Below are positions 10,359 to 63,474 of a stretch of DNA of 64,000 bases, one piece after another. Numbering within the stretch: the first letter of the stretch is position 1; each line of letters starts with the position of its first letter. The notes under the pieces were generated by a model. That model saw only the letters and a list, made by a program, of their open reading frames with translations, was not told the DNA's origin and searched no databases. Location: assembly GCF_016595415.1 (NCBI RefSeq), contig NZ_JAENIO010000002.1:1-64000 (forward strand), given 5' to 3'. A program made the position numbers and the translations under genes. Source of the DNA: Roseibacillus ishigakijimensis. GTDB taxonomy: Bacteria > Verrucomicrobiota > Verrucomicrobiia > Verrucomicrobiales > Akkermansiaceae.

Positions 10359-10469
10359 CCGGGAAGGGAGGTGGGAAAAGAACCGATGGCAGGCGGCTAT
10401 CCGGGCGATGTCGCGTTTTTTGCCAATTTTGTGGCCATTCTCGCGCTCGGAAGGACATTACCTCTGCGC

Positions 10470-19600: not shown

Positions 19601-19662
19601 TCCTCCCCGGAAACCAGGGCGGCGAGGGCAAACAAGGAGAGGATAAAGAGGCGGAGAATCAT
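16645..19662 (-). CDS. Large secreted PVC-type cytochrome c protein
   Basis: A 1005-residue exported protein. A signal peptide covers about 1-19. The first half (about 20-440) looks like the N-terminal DUF6797-type beta domains found in planctomycete/verrucomicrobial heme proteins. A propeller-like region with the calcium loop DTNGDGHID lies in about 470-760. The C-terminal cytochrome c domain has CIGCH at 935-939 and a likely distal Met982. It differs from the 864-residue cytochrome at 3753 by domain order and by lacking the C-terminal discoidin domain. It leads an operon with the sulfatase 9 bp downstream and is divergent from a PAS-AraC regulator (99-bp gap). A role in oxidising a sulfated sugar product is inference. 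Confidence 0.88.
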   Translation of the reverse strand: MILRLFILSLFALAALVSGEEAVRLFREDFREVEAHIPASSADLTSDYLTLERLGPGADRLKLSHHPPIPNDPHYLWNGECNGPVLIAFPLRQTTDLSDPDWQCRLNTKNFGSSTLHLAVRSQGRWFAQRHSVAPAENWNEQVLSFHRSDWVELDEKRVTLSAKRARPQLDAIEAIGFAAPRKPNRSKDCIRLNWFEVVKDSPSARLPTPLPRGEFLENETPFLRSALEYRQGDQQASVRRGILVPAGAGLWACFDPDLLRWAVLWRAPQGQAPLTYDSMAAISYPAAKAKAHRAPQLRGEVLAWNPGLAGVSAAGPPRDDPREARLISPQGPVGPLPADKGHFQGISLRGDEVVIHYQAAATDIAERLLVDDQGKLQRVLEVAAHPRRTLNLLHWDQNEEVRGVGARLQGGVLSLAPANETRTFVIFPRGSEPANWPRISHPKPASPAFPKAFQTSNPAPKEDGPFTIRNQAFPESDRAVRAVDIAFRPDGTGLLLTLDGDVWQITDIESEAPTWLRVATGIFEPMSIETSKEGKVFVLGRDQITELIDTNGDGHIDIFRNASDLFQQTLHTRDYATSLAIDQEGNFYLGKGGIISMGKGQTAEMSAHRGVILKISPDGKRSQVLADGLRLPYVGVRSDGSVFASDQQGHHVPSTPLYLIDGGKPYYGFEPTNFRNRKEVTEPLLWYPYQINRSGAGFCETSEKAFPDLPHAFLHLSWNGRLFAIATPQQGSPFSWKLPLQFDFPVLHGATHPQSGRLYVAGLGISGYQPTTPRLVGLASVEQSRRFPAPTGLALRDEAVQVTFNRPFNGEETLIPGNPALRLFNIHRTAKYGSGHYRWDDQPGEHVLAATSFAQQENRFQLTFPLLRRSDLFDLQLAVTAGDRTFPLHLYTRPSELPEATSRDLRSLAEADKDEKLDPGDAKTGETLFTQYACIGCHSLEGQKLTGPPLNGVAQRLGGDQLRQAILDPTAEIAAGYEPSMPSFEGVIPPQDLEHLLAYLRTLR

Positions 19663-31635: not shown

Positions 31636-34548
31636 TTAAGGAGCCTCCGGGGCCTCGATCAGGCGGTAAAAAACGAAGTCCTCCTGCGGGGGAGGGTCGG
31701 TAAAGGTCATGATCCCTCCTACGGGACAGGTCACGACTTCGCCGATATTTTCCCAGAATTGCAGGCTACTGCTTGCCTGCAAGCGATAGCGGCGACCCGG
31801 GATACCCGCTCCGCGCACAACGGTACCCGCCTCCGTCACCTCGGGCGGAAAGAGGTTGGAGGTCCGTCCCAACTCCAGATTGCCGGGGAAGAAGGAGACC
31901 GTGTTCGAGAATTCCTGATAACCGTCACTCACGGTGTAAGTGAAGGAATTGCCGTTATGTGGATTCCCGGGGGTGAAGATGAGCCAGCCCTCACTTTCTA
32001 TCAGGCTGCTCCCGTCGTCGCTCGTGGCCAGTTCGCTGTATCCCACTAGCGAAAATTCACGTCCTTCCTCGCCACCGCTGACACCGGCCAGCAAGTCGGC
32101 CAGGCGAATTTTGGCGCTGAGTCCATCCACGAAACCCAGGGAGCGGGGCGGCACGTTGAAGGCCGGGTCGTCGTCCAAGATGAGCAAAGTCCGCGCCAGG
32201 GTGCCGGCCAGCAGGGCTCTTTCCTTTGTATCAACAGCGGCGATGGTGAGGGGGATGCTTTCATTGCCTTCAGTGAGATGATCGCTGTAGATCGTCACCT
32301 GGAAGCTCGTGCTGGTGGTCCCGGCTGCCAAGAACAGGTTGCTTGCAGGCCAGGCGGCGTAATCTTCCCCGGCAGTGGCCGTTGCCCCGTCACCCAAGGA
32401 GCGCGAAATCTCCAAATCAACATCGAGGGGAGCGGTCACCGAGACCGTGAAGGTTGCCGTGGACGTGCCCGTGTCGCGCTCGATGACGGAGGAAGGAGCG
32501 ACCGTCAGTTCGAGGCTGGCACTGTCGTCATTGCGAATGGTGCCCGTGGCCTGGACATCGGTCAGCGTGCCCGCACTGGCATTGGCCAGGGTCAGGGTGA
32601 AGGTTTCATCCCGCTCAACCATAGAATCATCGAGAAGGGGAATGGCAACCGTAGTGGTCAGCTCGCCAGCCGCGAAAGTGGCTTCTCCCTCCGTCACTGC
32701 CGTGAAGTCATCACCCGCCAAGGCCGTCCCTGCCGCTGTGGAGTAGTCGACCGTGATTTCGCCTCCCGGCCCACTGCGGGTCAGGGTGAAAATCAGGGAG
32801 TCCTCATTCTCGTCCGCGCTCGCATCGGCAATGGAAATCTCCACCGGTTCCGCAGTCACCCGCAGGTGATCCACGAGGAGGCGCTCGTGGTTGGCGTTGC
32901 TCTGCAGGACGAGACGGAGGTGAAAGACTCCCGCCTCGGGCAGGGCGAACTGGAAGTTCTGAAAACTCGCGCCGAGCACGGTTCCATCCACATCGCCCGA
33001 GCCGTTCAGATCGAGATCCTCGGCCAGCACGGTCCCGCCGACCGGGTTCCCCTTCGCGGACCGGGCATGAAAGGCCCCCACCGTGGTCCAGTTCTCGCCA
33101 TCTTCGCTCACCCGGGCTTCGATGAAATCACCGCTGTCGTAGTTTGTGCCATCGGGGGCGGCGACCAGCAGATCGAGGGTCAGGTTGCTCTGTCCGCTGC
33201 CATCAAGAAGAAAGTCGATATGCTCCAGGGGTTCGGCCAGGCTGATATCTTCTCCCGCGAAAGCAAAGGAGCCATCAAGGCCGGGCAAATTGGGCTCGAC
33301 GCGTCCGAAAATGTCGTCGTCAGTGGGATCGCCTAGCAATCCCGCGGCCAAATAGCGCACGCCTTGCCCCTCGCTCTCGAAGCTTTCCTCAAAGGGCAGG
33401 GAATGGATTTGGTAGGGATTGACCAAGGTGAGAGGGCGGAACCGGGTCAGGGAGCGATTGCCCTGGTCATCGGTCACCTCCAGGGCCAGGCGCCGGTGAG
33501 GCAGGGCGGGATTGGTGCTCTCGCTGTTTTCGTAAGTGAGAGTGCGAAGAAGTGCCTGAAAGTCGGCCAAAGGAGCGGGGCCGGCGATGGTCAGCTCGCC
33601 GCTGTCGACGGAGAAAACGATGTCCTCTTCGCCCAGTGCTCCGGTGGAGGTGGCTGCCAGAATGTCTTCCGTCTCTTGGAATCCTGTCTCGAACCAGATG
33701 CGGGCCTGCTGCAAAGTGGGAGAGTCCGCATCGCTCAGACTCACCGCCGGGGCCAGCAGGACGGGACCGTCACCCTCGGTGTAAACGAGTTCGCTGTCAT
33801 CGAAACCGGCAATCCCGGGCCGGGCCATGACGGCGGGATCCCCTTGCACAGCGATGCTGTCGAGAGCGAAGAATTCGCCCGAACTATTGGAAAAAAAGGA
33901 GACCCGCACGGTGGCCGCCGGGCCTGGCGTTACCGGGAAGGAAAGGAGGGAAAAGTCGCTCCCTCCCAGGTCGGCGGAGAGTTGCACTCCGGGGAAGGTG
34001 TCGCTGCGGGTGAGCAACCCATTGTGAGACTCGCCGTGGAAGCGGACCACCTCGCTGAAGGTGACCCCGTCGGCGGAGTATTCCACGATCAGCCGGTCGG
34101 TAAACTGTTCGTTTCCGGCACCGCCAAAATCATATTCCGTGGGGTTATCAAAGGCGGTGAACGCTCCCGCCACGCCCGCCGAGTCCCCGGGAGCGGCCAA
34201 GCGAATCTCGACCCAGGTGTTGGTTGACGAGTTGAGGTCGAATCCACTGGTCTGCACCCAAGCCAGCGTTCCGGCCGGGGTCACGGTGGCGTCGAGGTCT
34301 TCGACTGCGAAAACGAAGTTGTCCTCGCTCTCTCCCAGCACGGCAAAGCGCGAGCCGTCATTGGGCAGGACGGTGAAAAAGTCGTAGAGCCCGTCGTCGA
34401 ACTCGGGCTCCGGGCCCACCGTGTAGCCCCAGTTGTCCCCCGGGGTGTCGTCGAAGGATTCGCGGGCGAGCTCGGCTCCGCGCGAAGGGGAGACCCCGAA
34501 AGCGAGAACGAGAAGGCCGAGGCCGAAAGAGAGAGAGTGCGGAATCAT
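31636..34548 (-). CDS. Giant secreted Calx-beta repeat surface protein
   Basis: A 970-residue exported protein. A signal peptide covers about 1-24. The N-terminal ~560 residues are beta-rich with two or three jelly-roll-like domains. Two Calx-beta domains follow at about 567-676 and 677-796, each with acidic calcium-binding turns (DDSMVERDE, DHLTEGNES). A cadherin-like TFTYTVSDG-type stretch follows near 865-880. The C-terminus (about 910-964) is a module of the form RLQASSSLQFW...FYRL that recurs in other secreted proteins of the window. It is likely a cell-surface adhesin or matrix protein. It lies 15 bp after the tail-collar gene in the same operon. Confidence 0.82.
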   Translation of the reverse strand: MIPHSLSFGLGLLVLAFGVSPSRGAELARESFDDTPGDNWGYTVGPEPEFDDGLYDFFTVLPNDGSRFAVLGESEDNFVFAVEDLDATVTPAGTLAWVQTSGFDLNSSTNTWVEIRLAAPGDSAGVAGAFTAFDNPTEYDFGGAGNEQFTDRLIVEYSADGVTFSEVVRFHGESHNGLLTRSDTFPGVQLSADLGGSDFSLLSFPVTPGPAATVRVSFFSNSSGEFFALDSIAVQGDPAVMARPGIAGFDDSELVYTEGDGPVLLAPAVSLSDADSPTLQQARIWFETGFQETEDILAATSTGALGEEDIVFSVDSGELTIAGPAPLADFQALLRTLTYENSESTNPALPHRRLALEVTDDQGNRSLTRFRPLTLVNPYQIHSLPFEESFESEGQGVRYLAAGLLGDPTDDDIFGRVEPNLPGLDGSFAFAGEDISLAEPLEHIDFLLDGSGQSNLTLDLLVAAPDGTNYDSGDFIEARVSEDGENWTTVGAFHARSAKGNPVGGTVLAEDLDLNGSGDVDGTVLGASFQNFQFALPEAGVFHLRLVLQSNANHERLLVDHLRVTAEPVEISIADASADENEDSLIFTLTRSGPGGEITVDYSTAAGTALAGDDFTAVTEGEATFAAGELTTTVAIPLLDDSMVERDETFTLTLANASAGTLTDVQATGTIRNDDSASLELTVAPSSVIERDTGTSTATFTVSVTAPLDVDLEISRSLGDGATATAGEDYAAWPASNLFLAAGTTSTSFQVTIYSDHLTEGNESIPLTIAAVDTKERALLAGTLARTLLILDDDPAFNVPPRSLGFVDGLSAKIRLADLLAGVSGGEEGREFSLVGYSELATSDDGSSLIESEGWLIFTPGNPHNGNSFTYTVSDGYQEFSNTVSFFPGNLELGRTSNLFPPEVTEAGTVVRGAGIPGRRYRLQASSSLQFWENIGEVVTCPVGGIMTFTDPPPQEDFVFYRLIEAPEAP

Positions 34549-52477: not shown

Positions 52478-53452
52478 TCAAGGCATCAACAGGTCGGGCT
52501 CGAAGAGGGCGCTCCATCCCACGGCGGCGAGACCCACGAAGAGAAAGAGGGCGAGGGCCAGCCAAAGGATAAAGCGGGGCTTCATGATGGTGGAGTAGAG
52601 AAAGAGCAGTTTGACATCCATCATGGGGCCGAAGACGAGGAAGCCCAGTCGCGCGGCGGTGCGGGGAGCGTCGGCCGCGAGGGTGGCCGCGATGAAGGCG
52701 TCGGAGGTGCTGCAGAGACTGAGAAGAAAGGCGAGGACCATGAAGGCGGCGGTTTGACCGAAGGGTGAGCCTTCCATGGATTCCAGCCACTCGGCTCCGG
52801 GGGCGATGCCGACGTTGAAGAGCGCGGTGATGATGACCCCGATGGTGAAGTAGACTCCCACGTCGGTAAAGTCCTTGAGCGCGGCTCGCATGGCGAGAAC
52901 CACGCGATTCTGCCCACCTTCATGGTGATGGTGGTCGTGTTCGTGGTGATGATGGTGCCCGGAAGAAGCTTCGTTTTGGGCCAGGACGCGGGATTTCAGG
53001 ATGCTTTGCAGGGGAAGGCGGAGGACTGCCAATCCCACCAAAATGGCTGCGAGGTAGCCGAGGAAAACCCGCGAGAAAGTGAAAAATTCGCTGCGCTGGG
53101 GCCAAAGTTCGAGGTCGGGGAAGGCGTTCCAGGTGGAGAGAATGGTGATGGGATTGACGATGGGCGCGGCCAGCATGTAGGCAAAGGCGCAGCTGACCGG
53201 CAGTCCTTTGGCGACCAGGCGGCGGATGACGGGCACAACAGCGCACTCGCAGACCGGAAGGAGAAGCCCCAGCAAACCGGAGACAAAAATGGCGGCGAAT
53301 TTGTTTTTGGGCAGCAATTTTTCCATCGCTCCGGCGGGGAGGTAGACCCCGAGAAAGCCGGAGAGGAGGGTTCCGAGCAGAATGAAAGGAGCCCCTTCAA
53401 AGAGGATGGATTTGAAGGCAATGGCAAAGTTGGCGAAATCGTCAGGCGACAC
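52478..53452 (-). CDS. DUF318-family permease with His-rich loop
   Basis: A 324-residue permease (DUF318/YraQ/ArsP-like), two homologous halves of four helices each. LLPVCECAVVPVIRRL near 64-79 and CSTSDAF in the second half are the family cysteine motifs. Between the halves (166-177) sits a His-rich loop, HHHHHEHDHHHH, which suggests binding of a soft or divalent metal. Family members export organic arsenic or other thiol- or metal-linked compounds. The start is GTG 53452. No metalloregulator is nearby. It ends ~100 bp before queG. Confidence 0.85.
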   Translation of the reverse strand: MSPDDFANFAIAFKSILFEGAPFILLGTLLSGFLGVYLPAGAMEKLLPKNKFAAIFVSGLLGLLLPVCECAVVPVIRRLVAKGLPVSCAFAYMLAAPIVNPITILSTWNAFPDLELWPQRSEFFTFSRVFLGYLAAILVGLAVLRLPLQSILKSRVLAQNEASSGHHHHHEHDHHHHEGGQNRVVLAMRAALKDFTDVGVYFTIGVIITALFNVGIAPGAEWLESMEGSPFGQTAAFMVLAFLLSLCSTSDAFIAATLAADAPRTAARLGFLVFGPMMDVKLLFLYSTIMKPRFILWLALALFLFVGLAAVGWSALFEPDLLMP

Positions 53453-53524
53453 GCGGAAAAGAAATCAGAAGGACAAGGGGGGAGGCCAGCCAAATCCCCA
53501 CCCCCCGCGATGGTGGCGGCCCGC

Positions 53525-54280
53525 CTAATTTTCAAAAGTGGCCGGTTCGTTGTATTCCTTCTGTCTTTCCAGGTCGTAGCCTTCGCGGGGTTGATGCAAG
53601 GCCAGGTTGCGAAAGCCGAGGGAGGAGCCGTTTTTGACGATTAACAAAAGCTTTTGGCTCCGGGGTTCGGGTTTGATGAGGTGGGACTTGGCGGGCTTCC
53701 AGCGCTCGCCTTCCTTGCGGGCAAGAATGAAGCGCAGAGCGTCGGCAGAGCGGTTGTTGGCTTTGTAAACCATGCGTTCGCCATTGCGGATGATGCGCCG
53801 TTGCCCTTCACAGCGGAAAGCCAGGTCTTCATTGGCGATATTGAGAAAACAATGGGCGTCCTCCGGGATTTCCTCGGCGGAAATGTTGTAGGCTCTCATC
53901 TGCAGCGATTGTTTGCCGGTGGGTGCGACGAAGAGCAATTGGTTGCTCGCGGCATCAGTGAGCTGAGCTGAGGCGAGAGGAAGGTAGGCGGGCTCTTCCC
54001 CCGTGCTCTTGGGATCGAGGCGGAAGAGATTCACCGCAGTGGCCTCCGCCGCGAGGGGGATCTGGTAGGAGATGGTGTTGGGATAGAGTTCGATCTTTTC
54101 CATCGCTTGCGCGCCCTGCACGTAGAACTCGATCTTGGCGCGACTGCTGGCCTTGGCATCCTGACTGAGCGCCTCGGGGGCGGTGTAGAAAAAGATCGCT
54201 GAGCGCTCGGACTGGGCCGGGAGCAGGCTGAGGAGGAGAAGTTGAAACAGGGTGGTGAAAGAGAGGTATGGGTTTTTCAT
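53525..54280 (-). CDS. Secreted partner of the Verru_Chthon protein A homologue
   Basis: A 251-residue exported protein. A signal peptide (KNPYLSFTTLFQLLLLSLLP) covers about 1-23. The rest is beta-rich with basic patches and no recognised domain. ATG 54280 follows the stop of the giant pilin-like gene by 1 bp, so translation is coupled. The frame is open upstream, but those codons lie inside the neighbour. It probably works with that protein, for example as an adaptor or cap. The name is inferred from position. Confidence 0.72.
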   Translation of the reverse strand: MKNPYLSFTTLFQLLLLSLLPAQSERSAIFFYTAPEALSQDAKASSRAKIEFYVQGAQAMEKIELYPNTISYQIPLAAEATAVNLFRLDPKSTGEEPAYLPLASAQLTDAASNQLLFVAPTGKQSLQMRAYNISAEEIPEDAHCFLNIANEDLAFRCEGQRRIIRNGERMVYKANNRSADALRFILARKEGERWKPAKSHLIKPEPRSQKLLLIVKNGSSLGFRNLALHQPREGYDLERQKEYNEPATFEN

Positions 54281-54281
54281 C

Positions 54282-57200
54282 TTAAATTTCGTTTTCATTG
54301 AGCCAGCGGAAACTGACGAGGGCAAAGCGGCGACCAAATTTTCGATTGGTAACAGACAAGGTATCCGGATCGTCGTGGGAGGGCAAATTACTCTCATCCA
54401 CATACTCGATTTCCCGCTGCACCACGGCTTCGCAGTAGGCTTTGGCGCGCACGGTGCCATCGGCCGCTCGGGAATCACCGTAGGCGCGGATTTTGAAGGT
54501 GTCGCCGCGGGCGGTGAGCACGGAGCCGATGCGCGCGAGGATGTCCGACTGCATGAGATAGCCGGGGATGCCGGTGCTGAGCTTGCGGTTGGCGATGGCT
54601 TCCATGGCCCCTTCCGAAACGAGGGTGTGGTTGTTGAGGATGAAGCCGGCGTTGGTGTCGTCGAAGGCGTCATTGATCGGGAATCCCGAGTTGTCGTCGT
54701 GATCGAGCGCTTGCTGTATCACGCCGTAGCTGCCGAACTCGTGATTGCCCTGTCCTTCGCCTTCCAGGGAACGGTTGATGAATTCCGCAAGGGAGAGAGC
54801 GGGGCGGCCACGGCTGGAGGACCGCTCGGCGCTGAAGCGAACGATCTGATTGGCCAGGGTCTCGATTTGCTCATCGGTCAACGCCCGGTAGCCTTCGTAA
54901 GCGGCTGGATCATCGGTGGTGGGGGACTCTGCCATGGGAGGGCCGAGAGGATCGTCAAACCGAATCATGGGGTCGGTGCCACTGTTTTTCTGTCCCGCCA
55001 CTTCCTGATCGCGGAAGGCGGCGAGAATGGCTTTCCAGGCATTGGGGGAAGCGGAATTGACATTGAAACCGCCCTCGATAGCCATGTGCGCGGCAATGGT
55101 TTGGGGTTCGATGGGGTCCCGGCCATTGTTTTCGAAGTGCAAGCGGTGGTTCTCGGGCTCTTCTCGCTGGGGCCCCTTGTCGTAGGTGGAGAAGAAGTAG
55201 CGGTCCCAGAGGTGCTTGTTCAGCACATAGGAGTAGTCGTAGGTATAGCCCGTGTCTTGCGGGCCTGCGGCATGATTGGGGCCGTGGTCATAGGCCTCCC
55301 GGTCCAAAGGCACGATGGTGGGTGAGTAGGAGTTGCCAATGGGGAAAGTGGGGTAAAAGGCGTTGGGAGTGATGTTCTGACCCCACTCGTTGAGAGTATT
55401 GGTGATGTGAAAGAGGTTGGCCTGGGCCAGTTCTCCGATGGAGCGGAAAACCTTTTCCTCCTTGGGATACTCAAAGAGAGAATATTTGGAAACTCCGAGC
55501 CCGAAGTCGATGGTGTTGCCGAGATTCACTCCCGTGGAGCCGGAGGGAATCCAGGATTGCAGGGGAAAGCCAAGACCGTTGTTGACCGCTCCCGCGATAT
55601 AAATCGGAGAAGAGGAGAAGGGGCGGGCCACATTCTGTCCATTGTCGCCATTGACCGCCATTCGGTTGAAGAAGGGGCTGCGCACATTGCCCGCACTGAG
55701 GATGTCCATTTGGAAGGACTTGCCCCCTTCGTTGCGCCAATTGACGAAGCTCTGCGGATTGGCCACCTGTTCGCTCTGGGGGAAGGGGATGAAATATTGG
55801 AAGCCCAGGAGTAACTCGTGCTTGGACTGATGGTAGTCGGGATTGGTGAGGTCGTTGACCGGAGGGTTGATTTCGCCATAGCTCAAGCGGGCATTGGGAT
55901 TGCCCAGACCCGGAAGATCGGAGCGGCCCATGAGAAAAAGGTCGATCTTGAAATTTTCGTTGATGAGGTTGGCCCAGGAGCCTCCGTGATTGACGGAGAC
56001 CAGTTTGGTTTCGACATCGAAATCGGGAGACTCGTTGAGAGAGCTGTGGGCGTTCCAGAAGTTGTCGGTGAAGCCGACGAGGGCGGTGGAGAGGCTGCGG
56101 ATGTCCCAGGAGGCATCGGGTTTTTCGTAGTAGAATCCTCCCACGGTCAAGAGGTCGGAGACCTCGGTGAGGCGGTTGTTCTGCGGATCATCGCTGTAGC
56201 GGCGGTAGCCCTCCGCGCCGAAGCGTTTGGTGCTTCCCGCCGGGATGATGCCGGGATTGAGGGAATACTTCACCACCGGCGCGCCCTCGTTCTGGGAGGG
56301 CTGTCGCCCGGCATTGGGAAAAATCTCGATGGATTTGCTGCCATTGGACAAGTAGGCGCGGATGCCGCGGAAGGTGTGTTGGTAGAATATCTCGCCGATG
56401 GCCATGTCAACATCGTAGGGATTCCAGAGGACCAGCGAGGGGCAAAAGTAGGCGTAGAAGGTGGCTCCGCCATTGTAGCTGCGGGCGTCGTCAATCGAAA
56501 TGGTCTCCACCGGAGTCCCGTTGGCGTGGGGAACGGCGAAAACCTTGAAGGTCCACTGCATGAGCGCAATGACGGGAGCTACGCCGGCATCGTCGTTGCT
56601 GGGGGGCTGGGCATTGACCACCGCGTTGCGGCTCGCGACCCGCTGGTTGAGGAAGTTGCGGAGCTGTTCCCAGCGGGGGCCACCGGGATCGCCCGACTGT
56701 TCCGAGGAAGGGAAAATGAGCTCGTTGTGGGGAGCGGCCGCGAGAAATTTTCCAAAATTGGTTTCTGAGCTTTCGAGGCCCAGGGTGAGGTCGGTCTTTA
56801 GCCCGCCCTCTGCCACGTCCACCAACAGGCTGCGGCTGAAGGCGGTGAGGTCGTTCTCGAGGTGGACCTCGGGGCGCCGGGCGGTCGTGCTGTTGGCACC
56901 GAGAGTGGCGAGAGAGGCGTAAGCCTTGGCCTTGTCGTCATCGAACCAGCTCAGGTCTCGCAGGGGTTGCCCTCCTTCCAGAGCGCTGAGCTGGGGATTG
57001 ACCGCGCTGGCGTAGAGCGCCCGCACCTGTTCCTCGGCCTCGGAGGGGAGGTTGATGGCGGCTTTCAGGTTTTCATCGGAGACCGCATAGCCGAAGGCGC
57101 CCGTGATCTCGTTTTCCGCCGATTGGATTCTCTCCAGTGCTACGGTGAGGGCCTGATGTTCAGACACGCCACCCGCACCACTTCCATTGGCCACCGATTG

Positions 57201-57728
57201 GGCGGTGGACCCGGGCCGGGCGGGGGAGAAGAGAGCGACTTCGCGGGGACCGTCCCCGCTGCCCACGGTTGAAAAGCTTGCCGGAGCCTGGTCGGGAGTG
57301 GGGCCCGCGCGGCCAGCGGTGCGGCCACTGACCAACCACACCGGCTGCCCATTGCCCAGTTCGGGAGCTCCTGCGAGGTGGTCGTCATTACTGGACCACA
57401 CCCCGGTCCAGCGCAGGGCGTTGGCATTCATTTGGGTCGCTCCGCCCGCGTTGAGTAGCTCGGCTTTGGCGGTCACCCGGGTGTCCGGCCCCGCGTATTT
57501 CTGCAGCTGCCCGATGGCAACTTGGAGTGCCAGCCGCGCGTTGGCCCGGGCTTCGAATTCCATTTGCTGGCTCCGCGTGGAGCGCAGTTGATTGGAAGAA
57601 AGCCCCAGTAGTCCCACGCTGAGCATGGACAACAGAATGAGCAGGGTGACCGTGACGATGAGGGAAAAGCCCGCCTTTTCAAAGCATCGGGGCTTTGAAG
57701 GAGCGTAAACAGGGTTTGAGGGTTTCAT
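54282..57728 (-). CDS. Verru_Chthon cassette protein A homologue, giant pilin-like surface protein
   Basis: A 1148-residue protein with a type IV pilin-like N-terminus: EKAG|FSLIVTVTLLILLS, with cleavage after Gly20, then a membrane helix to about residue 42. The rest is a long extracytoplasmic region with many Asn/Gly loops, typical of the Verru_Chthon cassette A family. In related genomes such proteins occur in multi-gene cassettes with small pilin-like B, C and D proteins; here only A is present. A 1-bp gap links it to the downstream secreted protein. It is divergent from a sigma factor across 187 bp. Processing by a prepilin peptidase and the GspE/GspF pair elsewhere is plausible. Confidence 0.87.
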   Translation of the reverse strand: MKPSNPVYAPSKPRCFEKAGFSLIVTVTLLILLSMLSVGLLGLSSNQLRSTRSQQMEFEARANARLALQVAIGQLQKYAGPDTRVTAKAELLNAGGATQMNANALRWTGVWSSNDDHLAGAPELGNGQPVWLVSGRTAGRAGPTPDQAPASFSTVGSGDGPREVALFSPARPGSTAQSVANGSGAGGVSEHQALTVALERIQSAENEITGAFGYAVSDENLKAAINLPSEAEEQVRALYASAVNPQLSALEGGQPLRDLSWFDDDKAKAYASLATLGANSTTARRPEVHLENDLTAFSRSLLVDVAEGGLKTDLTLGLESSETNFGKFLAAAPHNELIFPSSEQSGDPGGPRWEQLRNFLNQRVASRNAVVNAQPPSNDDAGVAPVIALMQWTFKVFAVPHANGTPVETISIDDARSYNGGATFYAYFCPSLVLWNPYDVDMAIGEIFYQHTFRGIRAYLSNGSKSIEIFPNAGRQPSQNEGAPVVKYSLNPGIIPAGSTKRFGAEGYRRYSDDPQNNRLTEVSDLLTVGGFYYEKPDASWDIRSLSTALVGFTDNFWNAHSSLNESPDFDVETKLVSVNHGGSWANLINENFKIDLFLMGRSDLPGLGNPNARLSYGEINPPVNDLTNPDYHQSKHELLLGFQYFIPFPQSEQVANPQSFVNWRNEGGKSFQMDILSAGNVRSPFFNRMAVNGDNGQNVARPFSSSPIYIAGAVNNGLGFPLQSWIPSGSTGVNLGNTIDFGLGVSKYSLFEYPKEEKVFRSIGELAQANLFHITNTLNEWGQNITPNAFYPTFPIGNSYSPTIVPLDREAYDHGPNHAAGPQDTGYTYDYSYVLNKHLWDRYFFSTYDKGPQREEPENHRLHFENNGRDPIEPQTIAAHMAIEGGFNVNSASPNAWKAILAAFRDQEVAGQKNSGTDPMIRFDDPLGPPMAESPTTDDPAAYEGYRALTDEQIETLANQIVRFSAERSSSRGRPALSLAEFINRSLEGEGQGNHEFGSYGVIQQALDHDDNSGFPINDAFDDTNAGFILNNHTLVSEGAMEAIANRKLSTGIPGYLMQSDILARIGSVLTARGDTFKIRAYGDSRAADGTVRAKAYCEAVVQREIEYVDESNLPSHDDPDTLSVTNRKFGRRFALVSFRWLNENEI

Positions 57729-57915
57729 AGAGATGGGTTTTGGGGATGATGCGCCCATCTTTCACTTTTGTGCAAAAAAGAGCCTCGAAACGAGAGGTTT
57801 GCGGAATCCGGAGAAGAAAGTTGTGGAAAGTGTTAAAAAGTGTCCAAATTCCTGCACAATTGGCCGTGAGATGACATTACCCGTGCAGCTCTTCCGCCTC
57901 CCGAGCGCGCGCACC
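57729..57915. promoter_or_regulatory. Divergent promoter region of the pilin-like and sigma factor genes
   Basis: It holds CTCGAAACGAG at 57784-57794, a perfect 4-bp inverted repeat with AAA centre inside a CCTCG...AGG frame. AAAGTGT is repeated in direct orientation at 57827-57833 and 57837-57843, 10 bp apart, one helical turn. These are candidate binding sites for the sigma factor or a regulator. No standard -35/-10 was found. Confidence 0.4.
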
Positions 57916-58485
57916 ATGTCCACACCCATGCCCAATCACGACGATTCCAGCCCAACCGACACCAGTCGGGGTGAACTCTTTTCGCAGCTGCTGGTCGGCA
58001 ATCGCCACCGCATCTACGGCTTCATCTACAGTCTCCTCCACGACCACCAGCAATCGGAAGATCTGATGCAGGAGGTGTCGACCATTCTCTGGCGCAAGTT
58101 CGACCAGTTCGAGGAAGGCACCGACTTCGCGGCTTGGGCCATGAGTGTGGCCCGCTTTTGTGCCCTCAACTGGCGGCGCAAACAGGCCCGTGTGCCCTTG
58201 GCCCTGGAGGAAGACGACCTGATGAGATTGGCGGATGACGCCGCGGCTTTGGGATGTTCTCTTGATGATCGGCGGGATGACCTCGAAGTCTGCTTGGGTC
58301 GCTTGCCCAACCGCTGTCGGCAAGCGGTGTGGTTTCGTTATCAGGAAGATTTACCGGTCAAGGATATTGCTAAAAAGCAACGAGTTAGCATTCGTTCCAT
58401 CTATCTTCTCCTCGAGAAGGCCCATGGAATGCTGCTCGATTGCATGAATCGTCGTCAGACGGAGTCGGCGCAAGCCAATCAATAA
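57916..58485 (+). CDS. Sigma-70 factor, Rhodopirellula/Verrucomicrobium type
   Basis: A 189-residue ECF-like sigma factor. Region 2 (about 25-95) includes the -10-binding helix QSEDLMQEVSTILWRKF and FAAWAMSVARFCALNWRRK. Region 4 (about 120-175) is CLGRLPNRCRQAVWFRYQEDLPVKDIAKKQRVSIRSI in outline, the -35-binding HTH. The type is common in planctomycetes and verrucomicrobia, usually next to a FecR protein, as here. ATG 57916 was chosen for family length; ATG 57871 is also in frame. It probably drives this locus in response to a surface signal. Confidence 0.93.
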   Translation: MSTPMPNHDDSSPTDTSRGELFSQLLVGNRHRIYGFIYSLLHDHQQSEDLMQEVSTILWRKFDQFEEGTDFAAWAMSVARFCALNWRRKQARVPLALEEDDLMRLADDAAALGCSLDDRRDDLEVCLGRLPNRCRQAVWFRYQEDLPVKDIAKKQRVSIRSIYLLLEKAHGMLLDCMNRRQTESAQANQ

Positions 58486-58499
58486 GGAGGAATTTTTCC

Positions 58500-60158
58500 A
58501 TGAAATACGAATCTGTCATTCCCAAAAAAGAAATCGACCACTTGGCCGAAGCTTTGCGGAATCAAACTCTGACTGACGAGGAGGCTGATCGTCTGCGCAC
58601 AATCATCCGCAAGCACCCCCGCGCCCGTCGGCGTCTCGTGGAGCATCTCTATCTGAGCGGGATTCTTCGCGATGAGCGCTACCGCTGGGAGCATGTCGGT
58701 CTGGAAGAAAAGATTGTTCCCATCCGTGAGGAGGTGGAAAAATTCCGTCCCCGCCAGTCCTGGGTGCCGGCCTTGGCGGCCTGTTTTGTGGGAGCACTCG
58801 GTCTTCTTTTCTACGTGATCTTTTCTAAGCAGGAGGTCGCCCCAACCATCGTGCGGCAAGGACCTCCGGCTGCCAGTCGCGACAATATCGCAGTCGTTTC
58901 CCGCCTCAGCCAGGTGCGTTGGGCGGAGGGAAGCGAGCAGCGGGCGCAAAAGCGGGGGCAGGCCCTCACTGCCGGGGTGGTGGAACTCGAGTCCGGCCTC
59001 CTCCAAATCGATTTTTACTCGGGAGCCACCGTCACTCTGGAAGGCCCCGCCCGCCTGGAGTTGGTCAATGCCGAGCTGGCTCGCCTGGAGCACGGCAATC
59101 TCTGGGCCAATGTGCCTCCGCCGGCCCAAGGATTCCGGGTCGAGAGTCGCTCCTTTGACGTTCTTGATTTGGGCACGGAATTCGGCATGTCCGTCACTCC
59201 CCAGGGAGATGGCGAGGTCCATGTTCTCGACGGCGAAGTGGAAGTTTATCAGCCCGGGCAAAAGGTGAAGGGCGAGGAAAAATTGCTCACCACCGGGCAG
59301 GCTCTGCGGGTGGGTGCGGATGGCCGGAGGGAGGCCATGGCTTCGGCGCCCAAGCGCTTCCAGGGCACCCGACGGCTGGATGAAGAAGCGGATCGGCGCC
59401 GCAAGATGTGGACCTCTTATCGCGACGGACTCAAGCAAGACCCTGATGTCGTGCTCTATTACGATTTCGAAGAAAACAGCCGCTGGGCCCGCCGACTACC
59501 CAACGTGGCCAAGAAGGCCGAAGCGAATACCGATGGGGCGATCGTGGGGAGCGAATGGGGGGAAGGTCGCTGGTTTGGCAAGCAAGCCTTGCAATACCGC
59601 AATCCCTCCGACCGCGTGCGCCTGCACTTGGATGGCCGCTTTTCCTCCCTGACCCTTGTGGCTTGGGTGCGGGTCGACTCACTGAAGAATTCCGAGATTT
59701 CCCTTCTCCATCCCGAGACTCGCCAGGATCGTTTCATCCACTGGACACTGGTCAACGTGAATGACCAAGGTGAGAAGATGCACGCTCACTTCGCCGAATC
59801 CATCAAGACCGGGGGAACCAACGAGGGGCGGAATCACTACCACTTTGCCACCGATCTGCTGCGACCAGCCGGGAGCTCGCTGGGAGAGTGGATGCAGCTC
59901 GCGCTGGTCTACAATCCGGCGGGCAATATCGTGAAACAATTCCAGAACGGGCAATTGGTGGGAGCTCTTCCTCTCAAGGAAAAGCGGGTGCTGGAAATTG
60001 GCACAGCCGATTTGGGCAACTGGCCCTACAAGGAATGGGCGAAGGACACGCCCTTTGAGGTGCGGAACCTCAATGGTGCCATTGATGAATTCATCGTCAT
60101 TCGGCGGGCCTGGACCGAGGAAGAAGTGCTCAGCCACTATCAAGTCGGCAAGCCCTGA
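58500..60158 (+). CDS. FecR-domain membrane protein with C-terminal LamG-like domain
   Basis: A 552-residue inner-membrane protein and probable anti-sigma or signal-transfer partner. The cytoplasmic N-terminus (1-88) is helical. A membrane segment spans 89-108. The FecR domain (about 125-260) has FDVLDLGTEFGMSV. A LamG/concanavalin-like domain (about 330-550) probably binds sugar. AAGGAGG at 58484-58490 overlaps the sigma factor stop, and ATG 58500 follows at good spacing, so the pair is coupled. FecR proteins pass an outer signal to their sigma factor; here the LamG domain would be the sensor. That is inference. Confidence 0.92.
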   Translation: MKYESVIPKKEIDHLAEALRNQTLTDEEADRLRTIIRKHPRARRRLVEHLYLSGILRDERYRWEHVGLEEKIVPIREEVEKFRPRQSWVPALAACFVGALGLLFYVIFSKQEVAPTIVRQGPPAASRDNIAVVSRLSQVRWAEGSEQRAQKRGQALTAGVVELESGLLQIDFYSGATVTLEGPARLELVNAELARLEHGNLWANVPPPAQGFRVESRSFDVLDLGTEFGMSVTPQGDGEVHVLDGEVEVYQPGQKVKGEEKLLTTGQALRVGADGRREAMASAPKRFQGTRRLDEEADRRRKMWTSYRDGLKQDPDVVLYYDFEENSRWARRLPNVAKKAEANTDGAIVGSEWGEGRWFGKQALQYRNPSDRVRLHLDGRFSSLTLVAWVRVDSLKNSEISLLHPETRQDRFIHWTLVNVNDQGEKMHAHFAESIKTGGTNEGRNHYHFATDLLRPAGSSLGEWMQLALVYNPAGNIVKQFQNGQLVGALPLKEKRVLEIGTADLGNWPYKEWAKDTPFEVRNLNGAIDEFIVIRRAWTEEEVLSHYQVGKP

Positions 60159-60185
60159 GCCCGGCTTGTCGCGATTCTTTTTTTC
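60149..60185 (+). terminator. Terminator after the FecR/LamG gene
   Basis: CAAGCC (60149-60154) pairs with GGCTTG (60163-60168) around CTGAGCCC. A T-rich run follows within 10 bases. The hairpin overlaps the stop codon. Confidence 0.6.
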
Positions 60186-60286
60186 ATTTTTTTGCAAGGA
60201 TTTCAAGGGAGGAACATCTCCACTCATGGCACTCTCGGCCTCAACGGGTCATCGCGGAAAGGGGTGCCGGAGCATTAAAGAAATCC

Positions 60287-62425
60287 ATGAAATTGACATC
60301 AAATTTGTGGCGACTCTCGTCGCTGGCGGCCTTTGCAGTGAGTTTTTCCAGTTGGGCTTCGGCCCAGATTGTGAGCGATGATTTTGAATCCTATGCCGAT
60401 GGCTCGACGATTCCCAATCAGACTTTTAATCCCGATTTTGAGGAAGACGGAGAGACTCCCCATCCGAAAGCCTATCTGAAGAACCTCATCACCGCGGCCA
60501 CCGGAGTCGGCTTGGACGCTTCGCAAGGCGCGAGCATCGATACCCAGACCGTGGAGGGAAATTACCGGGTCGCTTGGAACGAAGGGGTGGCGGGATCCTT
60601 TTACCAGTTCAAGGCCAGCTTCCAGATGACCATCAACCACTTGGTTCCGGAGGCTAACAATCACACCGTGGCCAGTGTCGGTTTCAGCAATAAACCCGAG
60701 TGGTGGAATGGCTCGAATATCACCGTCAACCTCGTGCGCCGGAATAGCGGCTTGAATTTCGCGCTTAGTGGCATCGGGAAAGACACCACGGAACAAGAGC
60801 CGTGGCAGGTGGTCGGCTGGGAGCCCCACACCAAATTAGGCCTTCCTGCTGAATTGCCCGCAGAGGGAGAGACGGCCACCAGTGACTGGTTCACCATGGT
60901 TTTGACTCTTCATGATACTGGCAATGAGGATGCCGGACGCACTTTGTGGAATGTCATTGCGGAGATATTGGATGAAACGGGTGCGGTCGTGCTCTCGCAC
61001 ACCGTCAACGATCGCCTGTTTACGGAGGTCAATAACGTGCCTCAGAACGGCGAGAATGATCTTTTTTCTCCTGGCGACCCGCTCTATCCGGTCGTGGTCG
61101 TGCCGTGGGTCGACCCGGACGGAGGAACCGGTCCCATCAGCGGCAATGGCTACCAAACTTTGGTGGGAGGGGGTCTCTCGGCATTGGTTTTCGACAACCT
61201 ACAGGCCGGGGGAGCGAGCGAGGACAGCGAAGATCCCGATGGCGATGGCTTTTCCAATGCCTTGGAGCTCGCCAATGGCAGCGACCCTTTTGATGCCGCC
61301 AGCGACCCGGCCTCCCTCTTTTCCATTGGTTTCACCGCAGACGAGGGCTACGTGGACTCCACGATCACGATAGTTGATAGTGGCGGCACGCCCGAAGATC
61401 CCAGCGATGACTTTCCCCAGGCAAGTGCCGATGGCTTGGGCACCCAACAGGCGTGGCTCGGACAAAATATCATCGTGCAGGATACTGCCGGGACCGGGCA
61501 GGCCTGTGCCGAGACTGGCTATCTGCGGGCGACTTGGGGCAATGGCGTGATGGGAGGAACGGGTGGCGTCGCCCAGACTGATGAGGTCATCGCCGTGGGG
61601 GACTCCTTCCAAATGGAGGTGCTGCATTCCTTCACCCTTGATGCCGCAGGGCCGAATGCGCCCCTCGGGATTTTCGGCTATCTCCCTGAGCGCACGGGTA
61701 ACGATGCCCCTGCGGAAGGATTCTCAGTGAAGTATTCGGCCTTCAACCAATCAGTGAATGGCGGGGGCGTGAAATTCATCGTCGACAAGAATCAGGAAGG
61801 GGCAGAGGAGAATGCCAGCGCCCTCATCATTCCCGGTCACGAACTGGGTCTCGATCCCGCTGATGTGTTGGGAAATGGGGCTGACTTCGAGTCCGATCCC
61901 GTGCGCATCACCTACACCATTCTCGCTGAGAATGGCGATGACCTGGGCTGGGATGGCAACTTCACGGTGCAGGAGTTTTCTATCGAGAATCTGGCAACCG
62001 GGATGACCTACGACTACGATTTGGAGACCTCACCAGTGAGCTTCGCCTGGACTGGGGGTGGCTTCGCCCTGCCCAATACCGATGCCTTCCTCACCATGCA
62101 ACTGGGGCGCACGAATGCGAGCAATCACACGACCGAGTGTGTCGATGCGGTCACAGTGAAGCGAGCCATCGAGCCGGATGTGGTGGTGGATCCGCCAAGC
62201 GGAGGACTGGCCATCACCGACAGCGGATTTGTCGATGAGAACACCTTTTTCATCGAGTTCAGCCCCGGTGGTCTCGGCTATAAGGTCACCACCGCCGCCG
62301 GACTGGATTTCGTCAACAGCGCCAGTGAGGTCACGACTTCTCTCGAGCCCACTGCGGAGGGAGAGAACCGATTCGAGTTCGCGGTCAGTGGGCCCACGGG
62401 CTTCTTCCGGGTCGAGGAAGAGTGA
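60287..62425 (+). CDS. Secreted two-domain surface protein with DxDGDG repeat
   Basis: A 712-residue exported protein. A signal peptide covers about 1-26. Two related beta domains lie at about 30-310 and 345-630: the stretch 91-118 (GNYRVAW...FQMTINH) resembles 411-447 (GYLRATWGNG...SFQMEVLH). Between them is a thrombospondin-type-3-like loop with DPDGDGFSNALELANGSDP (about 316-334). The C-terminus (663-712) ends in GFFRVEEE, like the terminal module of other secreted proteins here. It follows the sigma/FecR pair by 128 bp across a terminator-like hairpin, so it may be a target of the sigma factor. The ligand is unknown. Confidence 0.8.
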   Translation: MKLTSNLWRLSSLAAFAVSFSSWASAQIVSDDFESYADGSTIPNQTFNPDFEEDGETPHPKAYLKNLITAATGVGLDASQGASIDTQTVEGNYRVAWNEGVAGSFYQFKASFQMTINHLVPEANNHTVASVGFSNKPEWWNGSNITVNLVRRNSGLNFALSGIGKDTTEQEPWQVVGWEPHTKLGLPAELPAEGETATSDWFTMVLTLHDTGNEDAGRTLWNVIAEILDETGAVVLSHTVNDRLFTEVNNVPQNGENDLFSPGDPLYPVVVVPWVDPDGGTGPISGNGYQTLVGGGLSALVFDNLQAGGASEDSEDPDGDGFSNALELANGSDPFDAASDPASLFSIGFTADEGYVDSTITIVDSGGTPEDPSDDFPQASADGLGTQQAWLGQNIIVQDTAGTGQACAETGYLRATWGNGVMGGTGGVAQTDEVIAVGDSFQMEVLHSFTLDAAGPNAPLGIFGYLPERTGNDAPAEGFSVKYSAFNQSVNGGGVKFIVDKNQEGAEENASALIIPGHELGLDPADVLGNGADFESDPVRITYTILAENGDDLGWDGNFTVQEFSIENLATGMTYDYDLETSPVSFAWTGGGFALPNTDAFLTMQLGRTNASNHTTECVDAVTVKRAIEPDVVVDPPSGGLAITDSGFVDENTFFIEFSPGGLGYKVTTAAGLDFVNSASEVTTSLEPTAEGENRFEFAVSGPTGFFRVEEE

Positions 62426-62488
62426 TCGCAGCCGGAGCCTCTGCCTCTCATCGGGCTGGACTGCTTCCATTTGTTTATTTTGCTAAGA

Positions 62489-62524
62489 AAAAAACCGCCC
62501 GGGGGAAACTCTGGCCGGTTTTTT
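62489..62524 (+). terminator. Terminator after the secreted two-domain gene
   Basis: AAAAAACCG (62489-62497) pairs with CGGTTTTTT (62516-62524), a perfect 9-bp stem with an 18-base loop and a T-run. Confidence 0.75.
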
Positions 62525-62562
62525 GCGTTTAGCTCGCGTTCTCTTTCCGCTTGGGTAGGGCT

Positions 62563-63474
62563 ATGGAAATTCGTTCCGTTGCCATCGTGGGGGCTGGGGC
62601 CGTCGGGAGCTATTACGGCTGTCGCATTGCGCAAACTGGCCGGGAAGTCCGTTTTCTACTGCGATCGGACTATGAGACCGTGTGCCAGGAAGGATTTCGG
62701 ATCAGCAGCTGTGAGGGCGACTTTGATTTCCCTCAGCCGCAAGTTTTTCGTTCTCCGCAAGAATTGGGGCCCGTTGACCTCGTGATTGTGGCCTGGAAGG
62801 CTACGGCCAATGGCGCAGCCCGCGAGGTGATCTCCCCGCTTCTGCATGAGGAGACCCGTATTCTCACCTTGCAAAACGGGCTCGGAAACATCGAGTTCCT
62901 GGAAGATTGCTTCGGCGTCGGGCGGGTGCTGGGCGGAATCTGTTTCGTGTGCATCAATCGCCTGGCGGCGGGAGTCATCTCCCATACGGCCGGGGGGCAA
63001 ATCACCCTGGGAGAACGGGAGGCCTCGGGAGTCCTGGCTCAAGTAGCCACTCTATTCGGGCCTCACGTCAAGACCCAGGTGGTCGCGGACCTCCCCCTGG
63101 CCCAGTGGAAGAAGCTGGTGTGGAATATTCCCTTCAACGGCTTGTGCGTGCGGGAGGGCGGCATCGATACTGCCGAGCTGCTGGCGCGTCCGGGCAAGGA
63201 AGAGGAGGTGCGAGCCCTCATGGCCGAGGTGCAAGCAGCGGCGGCAGCCTTGGGGCATCACATTCGGGATGATTTTGCGGATGAACAAATCAGCAAGACC
63301 CGTGCGATGGGTGCCTACAAGCCCTCCAGCATGCTGGACTACGTAAATGGCTATCCCCTCGAGGTGGAGGCAATCTGGGGCGAGCCCCTCCGGCGGGCGC
63401 AGGCGGCGGGAGTGACCGTGCCCCGGCTGGCCAGGCTCTACCGCGACCTCTGCCAGCTTGATGGCGCATCCTGA
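62563..63474 (+). CDS. panE: 2-dehydropantoate 2-reductase
   Basis: A 303-residue ApbA/PanE family NADPH reductase making pantoate for coenzyme A. GAGAVGSYYG at 10-19 is the Rossmann loop. QWKKLVWNIPFNG contains the expected catalytic lysine. The C-terminal SMLDYVNGYPLEVEAIWGEP holds the substrate-binding Ser and acidic residue. Length is normal. ATG 62563 is preferred to the in-frame ATG 12 bp upstream. Ketopantoate reductase is the main role, but the family includes paralogues with other 2-keto acid substrates. Confidence 0.9.
   Translation: MEIRSVAIVGAGAVGSYYGCRIAQTGREVRFLLRSDYETVCQEGFRISSCEGDFDFPQPQVFRSPQELGPVDLVIVAWKATANGAAREVISPLLHEETRILTLQNGLGNIEFLEDCFGVGRVLGGICFVCINRLAAGVISHTAGGQITLGEREASGVLAQVATLFGPHVKTQVVADLPLAQWKKLVWNIPFNGLCVREGGIDTAELLARPGKEEEVRALMAEVQAAAAALGHHIRDDFADEQISKTRAMGAYKPSSMLDYVNGYPLEVEAIWGEPLRRAQAAGVTVPRLARLYRDLCQLDGAS

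What the first reader, a model, noticed from the sequence alone, without database searches (positions are those of the whole stretch)
57729..62425. Sigma factor, FecR/LamG sensor and surface proteins in one divergent locus
A Rhodopirellula/Verrucomicrobium-type sigma factor is coupled to a FecR protein whose outer domain is a LamG-like putative sugar binder. On one side is a duplicated secreted protein; on the other, divergently, a giant pilin-like protein and its 1-bp-coupled partner. The set looks like a contact- or glycan-sensing switch for surface display. A plain FecR/sigma pair is known; the LamG fusion with these outputs is the notable part.
Basis: inference. Interest (0 to 1): 0.55.

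Follow-up and report, generated by a model that had tools for sequence, protein, structure and literature searches.

The report
Sugar-sensing switch for polysaccharide-digesting genes
A bacterium carries a gene switch whose sensor has a sugar-binding-like domain, and a DNA signal in front of the switch recurs in front of genes for breaking down sulfated polysaccharides, so it probably tells the cell when such food is present.

Summary
The genes are real: ECF sigma (57916-58485 +), FecR protein with a LamG domain (58500-60158 +), secreted TSP3 protein (60287-62425 +) and, divergent, a giant pseudopilin (54282-57728 -) with a partner 1 bp behind. The FecR-LamG fusion is common: 38 of 78 related genomes, own included, have a match running into the LamG part. 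New is a promoter-like motif, TGCA-N17/18-ACATnnCC, upstream of sigma and of the secreted gene. I wrote it down before fetching more sigma orthologues; of the three closest new ones two carry it and one has its second half. In this genome it also precedes unlinked sulfatase, GH2, DUF5060, PEP-CTERM and PSCyt genes. In another species the sigma pair sits among sulfatases, GH16, GH43 and fucosidase. Best reading: an autoregulated glycan-responsive switch for sulfated-polysaccharide degradation, working like clostridial SigI/RsgI. The giant is a GspK-fold pseudopilin (Z 10-11), one of 13 paralogues; its link to the switch is weak (rank 91 of 352, or 7 of 348 genes scoring as high, depending on the matrix). 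Surface display is only partly supported. Nothing was tested at the bench.

The parts
57916..58485 (+). ECF sigma factor (start 57916 or 57928; TIGR02989-like, below that model's cut-off)
   Evidence: orthologues 54-71% identical in 5 genomes
58500..60158 (+). FecR-type anti-sigma factor: N-terminal cytoplasmic part, one membrane segment, FecR domain, C-terminal LamG (concanavalin A-like) domain; the last two predicted periplasmic (inference from the single segment)
60287..62425 (+). secreted TSP3-repeat protein, adjacent predicted target
57853..57881 (+). promoter-like motif of the sigma gene, TGCA-N17-ACATTACC
60193..60221 (+). promoter-like motif of the secreted gene, TGCA-N17-ACATCTCC; same spacing upstream of the G047 homologue
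57745..57774 (-). weak candidate motif just upstream of the giant's ATG (GCAT instead of ACAT)
   Evidence: 13.8 bits, 7 of 348 genes score as high or higher; foreign-only matrix, rank 91 of 352
54282..57728 (-). giant GspK-fold minor pseudopilin (1148 aa) with a large middle insertion; one of 13 paralogues in the genome
53525..54280 (-). secreted partner of the giant; two tandem beta-sandwich domains in the model

Best explanation
The sigma gene and the FecR-LamG gene form an autoregulated trans-envelope switch. The FecR-type protein holds the sigma factor at the inner membrane. Its LamG domain, in the periplasm, recognises an imported glycan or fragment, and the sigma factor is then released. 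It reads promoters of the form TTTGCA-N17/18-ACATnnCC. In this genome these lie upstream of the sigma gene itself, of the neighbouring secreted TSP3 protein, and of an unlinked set of sulfatase, GH2, DUF5060, PEP-CTERM, DUF1800 and PSCyt genes. Shown by computation: gene architecture; the motif at four sigma genes of one clade (window, G047, G204, G281; G278 has the second half, G001 lacks it); its near-restriction to that clade; and the classes of gene downstream. Inferred: that this sigma binds the motif, that LamG binds glycan, that binding releases sigma, and the identity of the glycan (sulfated galactan- or fucan-like, from the enzymes).
For: Motif noted, then seen at sigma genes of G204 and G281, second half only at G278. 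A matrix from three foreign sigma promoters ranks, among 352 own-genome genes, GH2 first, window sigma second, C126 sulfatase third, window secreted ninth (tied); the GH2 site does not match the pattern used to fetch that stretch. Of 49 ECF genes that could be scored (50 found), upstream scores of 13 or more occur only at five of this clade, window included (four of these sites trained that matrix), and at one other sigma in G001; the next is 6.4. Sites of 17 or more: 1 intergenic and 3 inside genes in 891 kb of loci from genomes with no orthologue found. Own-genome pattern matches: 9 intergenic among 22 placed of 23, all ahead of sigma or of genes with signal-peptide-like starts by eye. Homologous genes with the motif in two species each: sulfatase (64% identical) and PEP-CTERM protein (57%), pseudopilin (43%). 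In G047, 7 of 23 matches lie within 80 kb of sigma, P = 2e-6; 5 of 21 without the two training sites, P = 2e-4; the 80 kb was chosen after seeing the positions. In G204 the sigma pair sits among sulfatases, GH16, GH43, GH29.
Against: The G001 orthologue (70% identical sigma) has no motif upstream of sigma (score 4.9), and more distant sigma relatives lack it too. The pattern's total count does not separate genomes with and without the orthologue. The intergenic excess over the one control genome is only P = 0.066 (19 of 53 against 2 of 16). Several intergenic matches in G204 and G047 have no gene, or no sensible gene, behind them. The refined matrix uses sites chosen with the pattern. The own genome could be read only in fetched stretches. 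I have no binding or transcription data.
Confidence: 0.7

Rival explanations
1. One reading: the sigma/FecR-LamG pair is chiefly a switch for surface display, driving the giant pseudopilin with its partner and the secreted protein.
For: Divergent layout here and in a second, sequence-divergent copy at C135; ECF-FecR pairs in tandem with giants in L098 and L120; only 7 of 348 genes score as high as the giant's upstream site with the refined matrix; pseudopilins are motif-bearing in G204 and G047.
Against: Only 3 ECF genes within 2 kb of 77 other giants, 1.23 expected; foreign-only matrix puts the giant at rank 91 of 352; arrangement not kept in G001 and no giant in 20 kb of G047; the strongest motif targets are hydrolases and secreted proteins.
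Confidence: 0.2
2. The motif belongs to another regulator or a general promoter class, and the sigma gene is merely one of its targets.
For: All 42 genomes scanned have more pattern matches than reversed-pattern control; one other sigma in G001 has a site.
Against: High-scoring intergenic sites are nearly absent in 891 kb from genomes with no orthologue found and upstream of other ECF genes.
Confidence: 0.2
3. Chance neighbourhood: sigma/FecR-LamG, secreted gene and giant module are unrelated genes that happen to lie together.
For: G001 and G047 arrangements differ; 11 of 13 own giants have no ECF hit within 2 kb.
Against: Shared motif upstream of sigma and secreted genes in both this genome and G047.
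Confidence: 0.1

Closest known systems
SigI/RsgI systems of Clostridium thermocellum (PMC4711584, abstract and introduction read)
   Same: Alternative sigma beside a membrane anti-sigma whose outer domain binds polysaccharide; autoregulation; regulon of polysaccharide-degrading genes.
   Different: SigI lacks sigma region 4 and RsgI carries CBM3, PA14 or GH10 domains on a Gram-positive surface; here a two-domain ECF sigma and a FecR-LamG protein that would face the periplasm.
FecI/FecR cell-surface signalling (PMC9249621, abstract start in search listing only)
   Same: ECF sigma next to a FecR-domain membrane protein.
   Different: No TonB-dependent receptor among the seven genes scanned with Pfam around it; an extra LamG domain; predicted targets are hydrolases and secreted proteins, not iron transporters.
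Bacteroidota ECF/anti-sigma control of polysaccharide utilisation loci (PMC3878776, PMC11501099, search listings only)
   Same: ECF sigma and anti-sigma governing glycan degradation.
   Different: SusC/D-type transducers are the usual partners (recalled); none seen here.
T2SS minor pseudopilin GspK/XcpX (PDB 6utu, 5vtm, 9a1f, 3ci0)
   Same: Predicted fold of the giant's N- and C-terminal parts, Z 10.3-11.1.
   Different: Three to four times longer by a middle insertion; no gsp genes among the neighbours scanned; 13 paralogues in this genome; beta-sandwich partner.
Verru_Chthon cassette protein A (TIGR02600)
   Same: The N-terminal 59 model positions match.
   Different: 23.7 bits against a cut-off of 332.3; none of 13 own-genome hits reaches the cut-off.

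Membership tests
ECF sigma factors | sigma regions 2 and 4 only | tested here: met
   PF04542 and PF08281 over cut-off, no region 3 listed
TIGR02989 Sig-70_gvs1 | score over curated cut-off 124.55 | tested here: not met
   118.3 and 119.6 bits
FecR-type anti-sigma factors | FecR domain over cut-off | tested here: met
   25.0 against 24 bits, a narrow pass
FecR-type anti-sigma factors | single membrane segment between N-terminal part and FecR domain | tested here: met
   hydropathy windows of 1.3 or more only between start positions 86 and 100; best elsewhere 0.89
FecR-type anti-sigma factors | binds and inhibits the neighbouring sigma | not testable with these tools
   needs experiment
FecI/FecR/FecA surface signalling | adjacent TonB-dependent transducer | tested here: not met
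   none among the seven genes of 52478-63474 scanned
SigI/RsgI polysaccharide sensing | anti-sigma with carbohydrate-binding outer domain | tested here: inconclusive
   LamG domain over cut-off; ligand binding untested
SigI/RsgI polysaccharide sensing | sigma lacks region 4 | tested here: not met
   region 4 present; works like, is not a member
GspK minor pseudopilins | GspK fold | tested here: met
   Z 11.1-10.3 to four XcpX/GspK entries, next row 5.0; but Foldseek alone E = 0.12, model pLDDT 64.9
GspK minor pseudopilins | NCBIfam NF037980 cut-off 130 | tested here: not met
   14.1 bits
Verru_Chthon cassette | protein A over cut-off 332.3 | tested here: not met
   23.7 bits

The most novel reading that the evidence does not exclude
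Verrucomicrobia carry a large family of GspK-fold pseudopilus tip proteins with big inserted domains, most with a beta-sandwich partner. Some are switched on together with sulfated-polysaccharide hydrolases by glycan-sensing ECF/FecR-type pairs, so that a tip suited to the substrate captures it for uptake into the periplasm, where the LamG sensor reads it.
Probability: 0.15. Interest if true: 0.8.

Novelty: new variant of a known kind. Interest (0 to 1): 0.52.

Why it matters
These genomes carry many ECF sigma genes (16 TIGR02989-like matches here and up to 41 in a relative at E of 1e-10), and I found no paper in the library searched that maps signals or targets for the FecR-LamG kind. A concrete promoter motif with a named target set makes one such switch directly testable, and suggests how bacteria that degrade sulfated polysaccharides could sense what is in the periplasm. 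The giant GspK-fold family, 13 copies here and found in Verrucomicrobiota from several classes, is a second open question that becomes workable.

Tried and rejected
Giant-ECF linkage as a conserved unit: not established (3 observed against 1.23 expected). Total pattern counts as regulon evidence: rejected, because all 42 genomes exceed the reversed control, with or without the orthologue. The C135 cassette sharing the motif: not found (sigma, giant and secreted upstream scores 5.6-7.0). C135's middle protein has no Pfam match at E 0.1. The giant as a Verru_Chthon A member: rejected. Giant against PDB by sequence profile: no match up to E 1. Giant against single E. coli GspK and GspJ by profile: only the N-terminal helix, probability 30 and 1.

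Partner fold: PepT ectodomains (Z up to 12.8) and AlgF domains (Z 8.8, 8.2) are among the leading rows; a shared fold says nothing about function.

Literature: no paper holding Verru_Chthon. Searches around FecR, LamG, ECF sigma, sulfatase and these phyla returned, judging by titles and abstract starts of the listed papers, nothing on this system; several lists were capped and the library lacks most subscription journals. PMC4807772, PMC7406223 and PMC11131199 were searched for terms only.

Full report
What is there. Sigma has regions 2 and 4 and scores just under the TIGR02989 cut-off. The next gene, 14 nt on, has a FecR and a LamG domain, both over cut-off, FecR narrowly, and one membrane segment. 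Then comes a secreted TSP3 protein. Divergently lie the giant and its partner, with one base between stop and start.

How unusual. At E of 1e-20 or better, 44 of 78 genomes (own included) match the FecR-LamG protein; in 38 a match runs into the LamG part and in 6 it covers the FecR part only (my count from the rows). The giant matches in 49 of 78. The own genome has 20 TIGR02989-like sigma matches at E of 1e-3, 4 matches to the FecR-LamG protein, one of them to the FecR part only, and 13 giants (counted from 26 rows). So the parts are common; the combination is rare.

Is the combination conserved? In G001 sigma-FecR and giant-partner lie on one strand, sigma 3.8 kb from the giant with FecR and two other genes between. 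In G047, whose FecR protein is 48% identical, a homologue of the secreted protein lies near but no giant or partner is in the 20 kb fetched. Two other giants in relatives lie in tandem with ECF-FecR pairs (L098, L120), and a second divergent cassette with a different middle protein is in the own genome (C135). Over 77 other giants, 3 ECF genes lie within 2 kb, 1.23 expected, P = 0.13. Among the 79 loci from the search for related loci, two more giants had an ECF gene within about 1 kb (L175, L182), without a FecR-like hit. I treat the giant link as suggestive only.

The motif. Comparing upstream regions by eye showed a shared block between the secreted genes of this genome and G047, and a similar one before sigma; one search checked how rare its pieces are, and I wrote it down. 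A search for sigma orthologues (14 of 260 genomes, own included, at E of 1e-35) gave three new ones of 54-62% identity, G204, G281 and G278. G204 and G281 carry the full motif at sigma, G278 only its second half. G001 (70%) lacks it, and more distant relatives of 38-48% score under 2. The form is TGCA, 17-18 bases, then ACATnnCC.

Tests of the motif. (a) A matrix made from four sigma promoters, window included, puts the window secreted gene second of 331 own-genome genes, behind sigma. (b) A matrix from three foreign sigma promoters puts GH2 of C126 first, window sigma second, the C126 sulfatase third and the window secreted gene ninth (tied) of 352. That list includes stretches fetched because they held pattern matches, but the GH2 site does not match the pattern. 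Ranks six to eight are genes with no evident link. Twenty column-shuffled matrices gave 0-4 genes at the threshold that 6 reach with the real one. (c) Of 49 scored ECF genes only five of this clade (four of them training sites) and one other sigma reach 13 bits; the next is 6.4. (d) With the 17-site matrix, intergenic sites of 17 bits or more number 1 in 418 kb of own-genome loci fetched for other reasons; 2 in the window (both training sites); 1 in 171 kb of G001; 1 in 891 kb from genomes in which no orthologue was found (four of these genomes, G051, G055, G059 and G062, belong to other families and were not in the orthologue search); 5 in 26 kb of the two own-genome stretches fetched for the motif (three of them training sites); 3 in 129 kb of G047 (two training sites); and 5 in 48 kb around the sigma genes of G204, G281 and G278 (two training sites; one, L220:16332, is really inside a sulfatase gene). 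Inside genes there were 1, 0, 0, 3, 0, 1 and 0 such sites in the same order.

What the motif precedes. The pattern has 23 matches in the own genome. Thirteen are inside genes, nine are intergenic and one could not be placed. The nine precede sigma, the secreted gene, two sulfatases, a PSCyt1/2 protein, a DUF1800-TSP3 relative of the secreted protein, a PEP-CTERM protein and two further proteins with signal-peptide-like starts. C126:132-148 kb holds DUF5060, PEP-CTERM, three sulfatases, GH2, DUF1501 and PSCyt genes; sites precede DUF5060, PEP-CTERM, the first sulfatase, GH2 and PSCyt. In G003, same genus with no orthologue found, 2 of 16 matches are intergenic. In G204 it is 5 of 13 and in G047 7 of the 20 fetched. 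Excluding training sites, 19 of 53 against 2 of 16 gives P = 0.066, so this test alone is weak. Stronger is that homologous genes carry the motif in two species: sulfatase and PEP-CTERM protein and a pseudopilin. In G047, 7 of 23 matches lie within 80 kb of sigma (P = 2e-6; 5 of 21 without training sites, P = 2e-4; distance chosen after seeing the positions).

Counter-results. Total pattern counts exceed the reversed control in all 42 genomes, orthologue or not, so they say nothing. G204's intergenic matches include one with no gene called behind it apart from sigma's own, and two 200-211 nt from genes with no evident link; G047 has one without a gene. The giant's site is 13.8 bits with the refined matrix (7 of 348 genes score as high or higher) but rank 91 of 352 with the foreign-only matrix.

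The giant and its partner. The giant's model (pLDDT 64.9) matches XcpX/GspK, Z 11.1 over 225 residues, 11.0, 10.6 and 10.3, the next row 5.0, although Foldseek alone gave E = 0.12 and sequence profiles match only the N-terminus. It is thus best called a GspK-fold minor pseudopilin with a very large insertion. The partner (pLDDT 83.4) is two tandem beta-sandwiches, nearest to PepT ectodomains, with AlgF domains further down. A partner-like gene lies within 600 nt of 137 of 164 giants, a count that includes duplicate loci and the seeds of the profile.

Mechanism. The anatomy fits an ECF sigma held by a FecR-type protein whose LamG domain would face the periplasm, with sigma transcribing its own gene, a neighbour and a distant set of sulfatases and glycosidases. 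That is how SigI/RsgI works in Clostridium thermocellum (PMC4711584, abstract and introduction), with different proteins. Planctomycetes are reported to take dextran into the periplasm and to bind it on pili-like fibres (PMC5394234, passages); that is the ground for the bold reading, not evidence for it here. Ligand, release step and sigma-promoter contact are inferred.

Noticed in passing
L021:12160-14366 (contig C115:65159-67365): A second sigma/FecR-LamG pair 1.2 kb beyond the window's end, with a stronger LamG match (67.3 bits) and no motif upstream.
   Followed up: partly
L025:5619-14616 (contig C135): A second divergent cassette: partner and giant against ECF, membrane protein and secreted protein; the membrane protein has no Pfam match and the secreted protein is unrelated by BLAST at E 1e-3.
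   Followed up: partly
L055:11407-12108 (G001): A different sigma gene, next to genes that look PSCyt/DUF1501-like by eye, carries a good site (17.6 bits) in the genome whose own orthologue lacks it.
   Followed up: no
L220:11763-12572 and L285:733-1470: Homologous prepilin-like proteins (43% identical), each directly behind the motif, in two species.
   Followed up: partly
L038:7311-16641 (contig C117): A giant-partner module among genes that look, by eye, like a sugar-utilisation cluster with a LacI-type regulator.
   Followed up: no
L189:3-11990 (record titled Akkermansia glycaniphila Pyt): Three giants on one strand within 12 kb.
   Followed up: no
window 10371-12146 +: A sulfatase gene (186 bits) inside the window with no site of 13 bits or more upstream.
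   Followed up: no
window 31636-34548 -: A 970-aa protein with Calx-beta repeats.
   Followed up: no
window 3753-6347 - and 16645-19662 -: Large proteins with DUF7133 and DUF6797, each with a cytochrome c domain.
   Followed up: no
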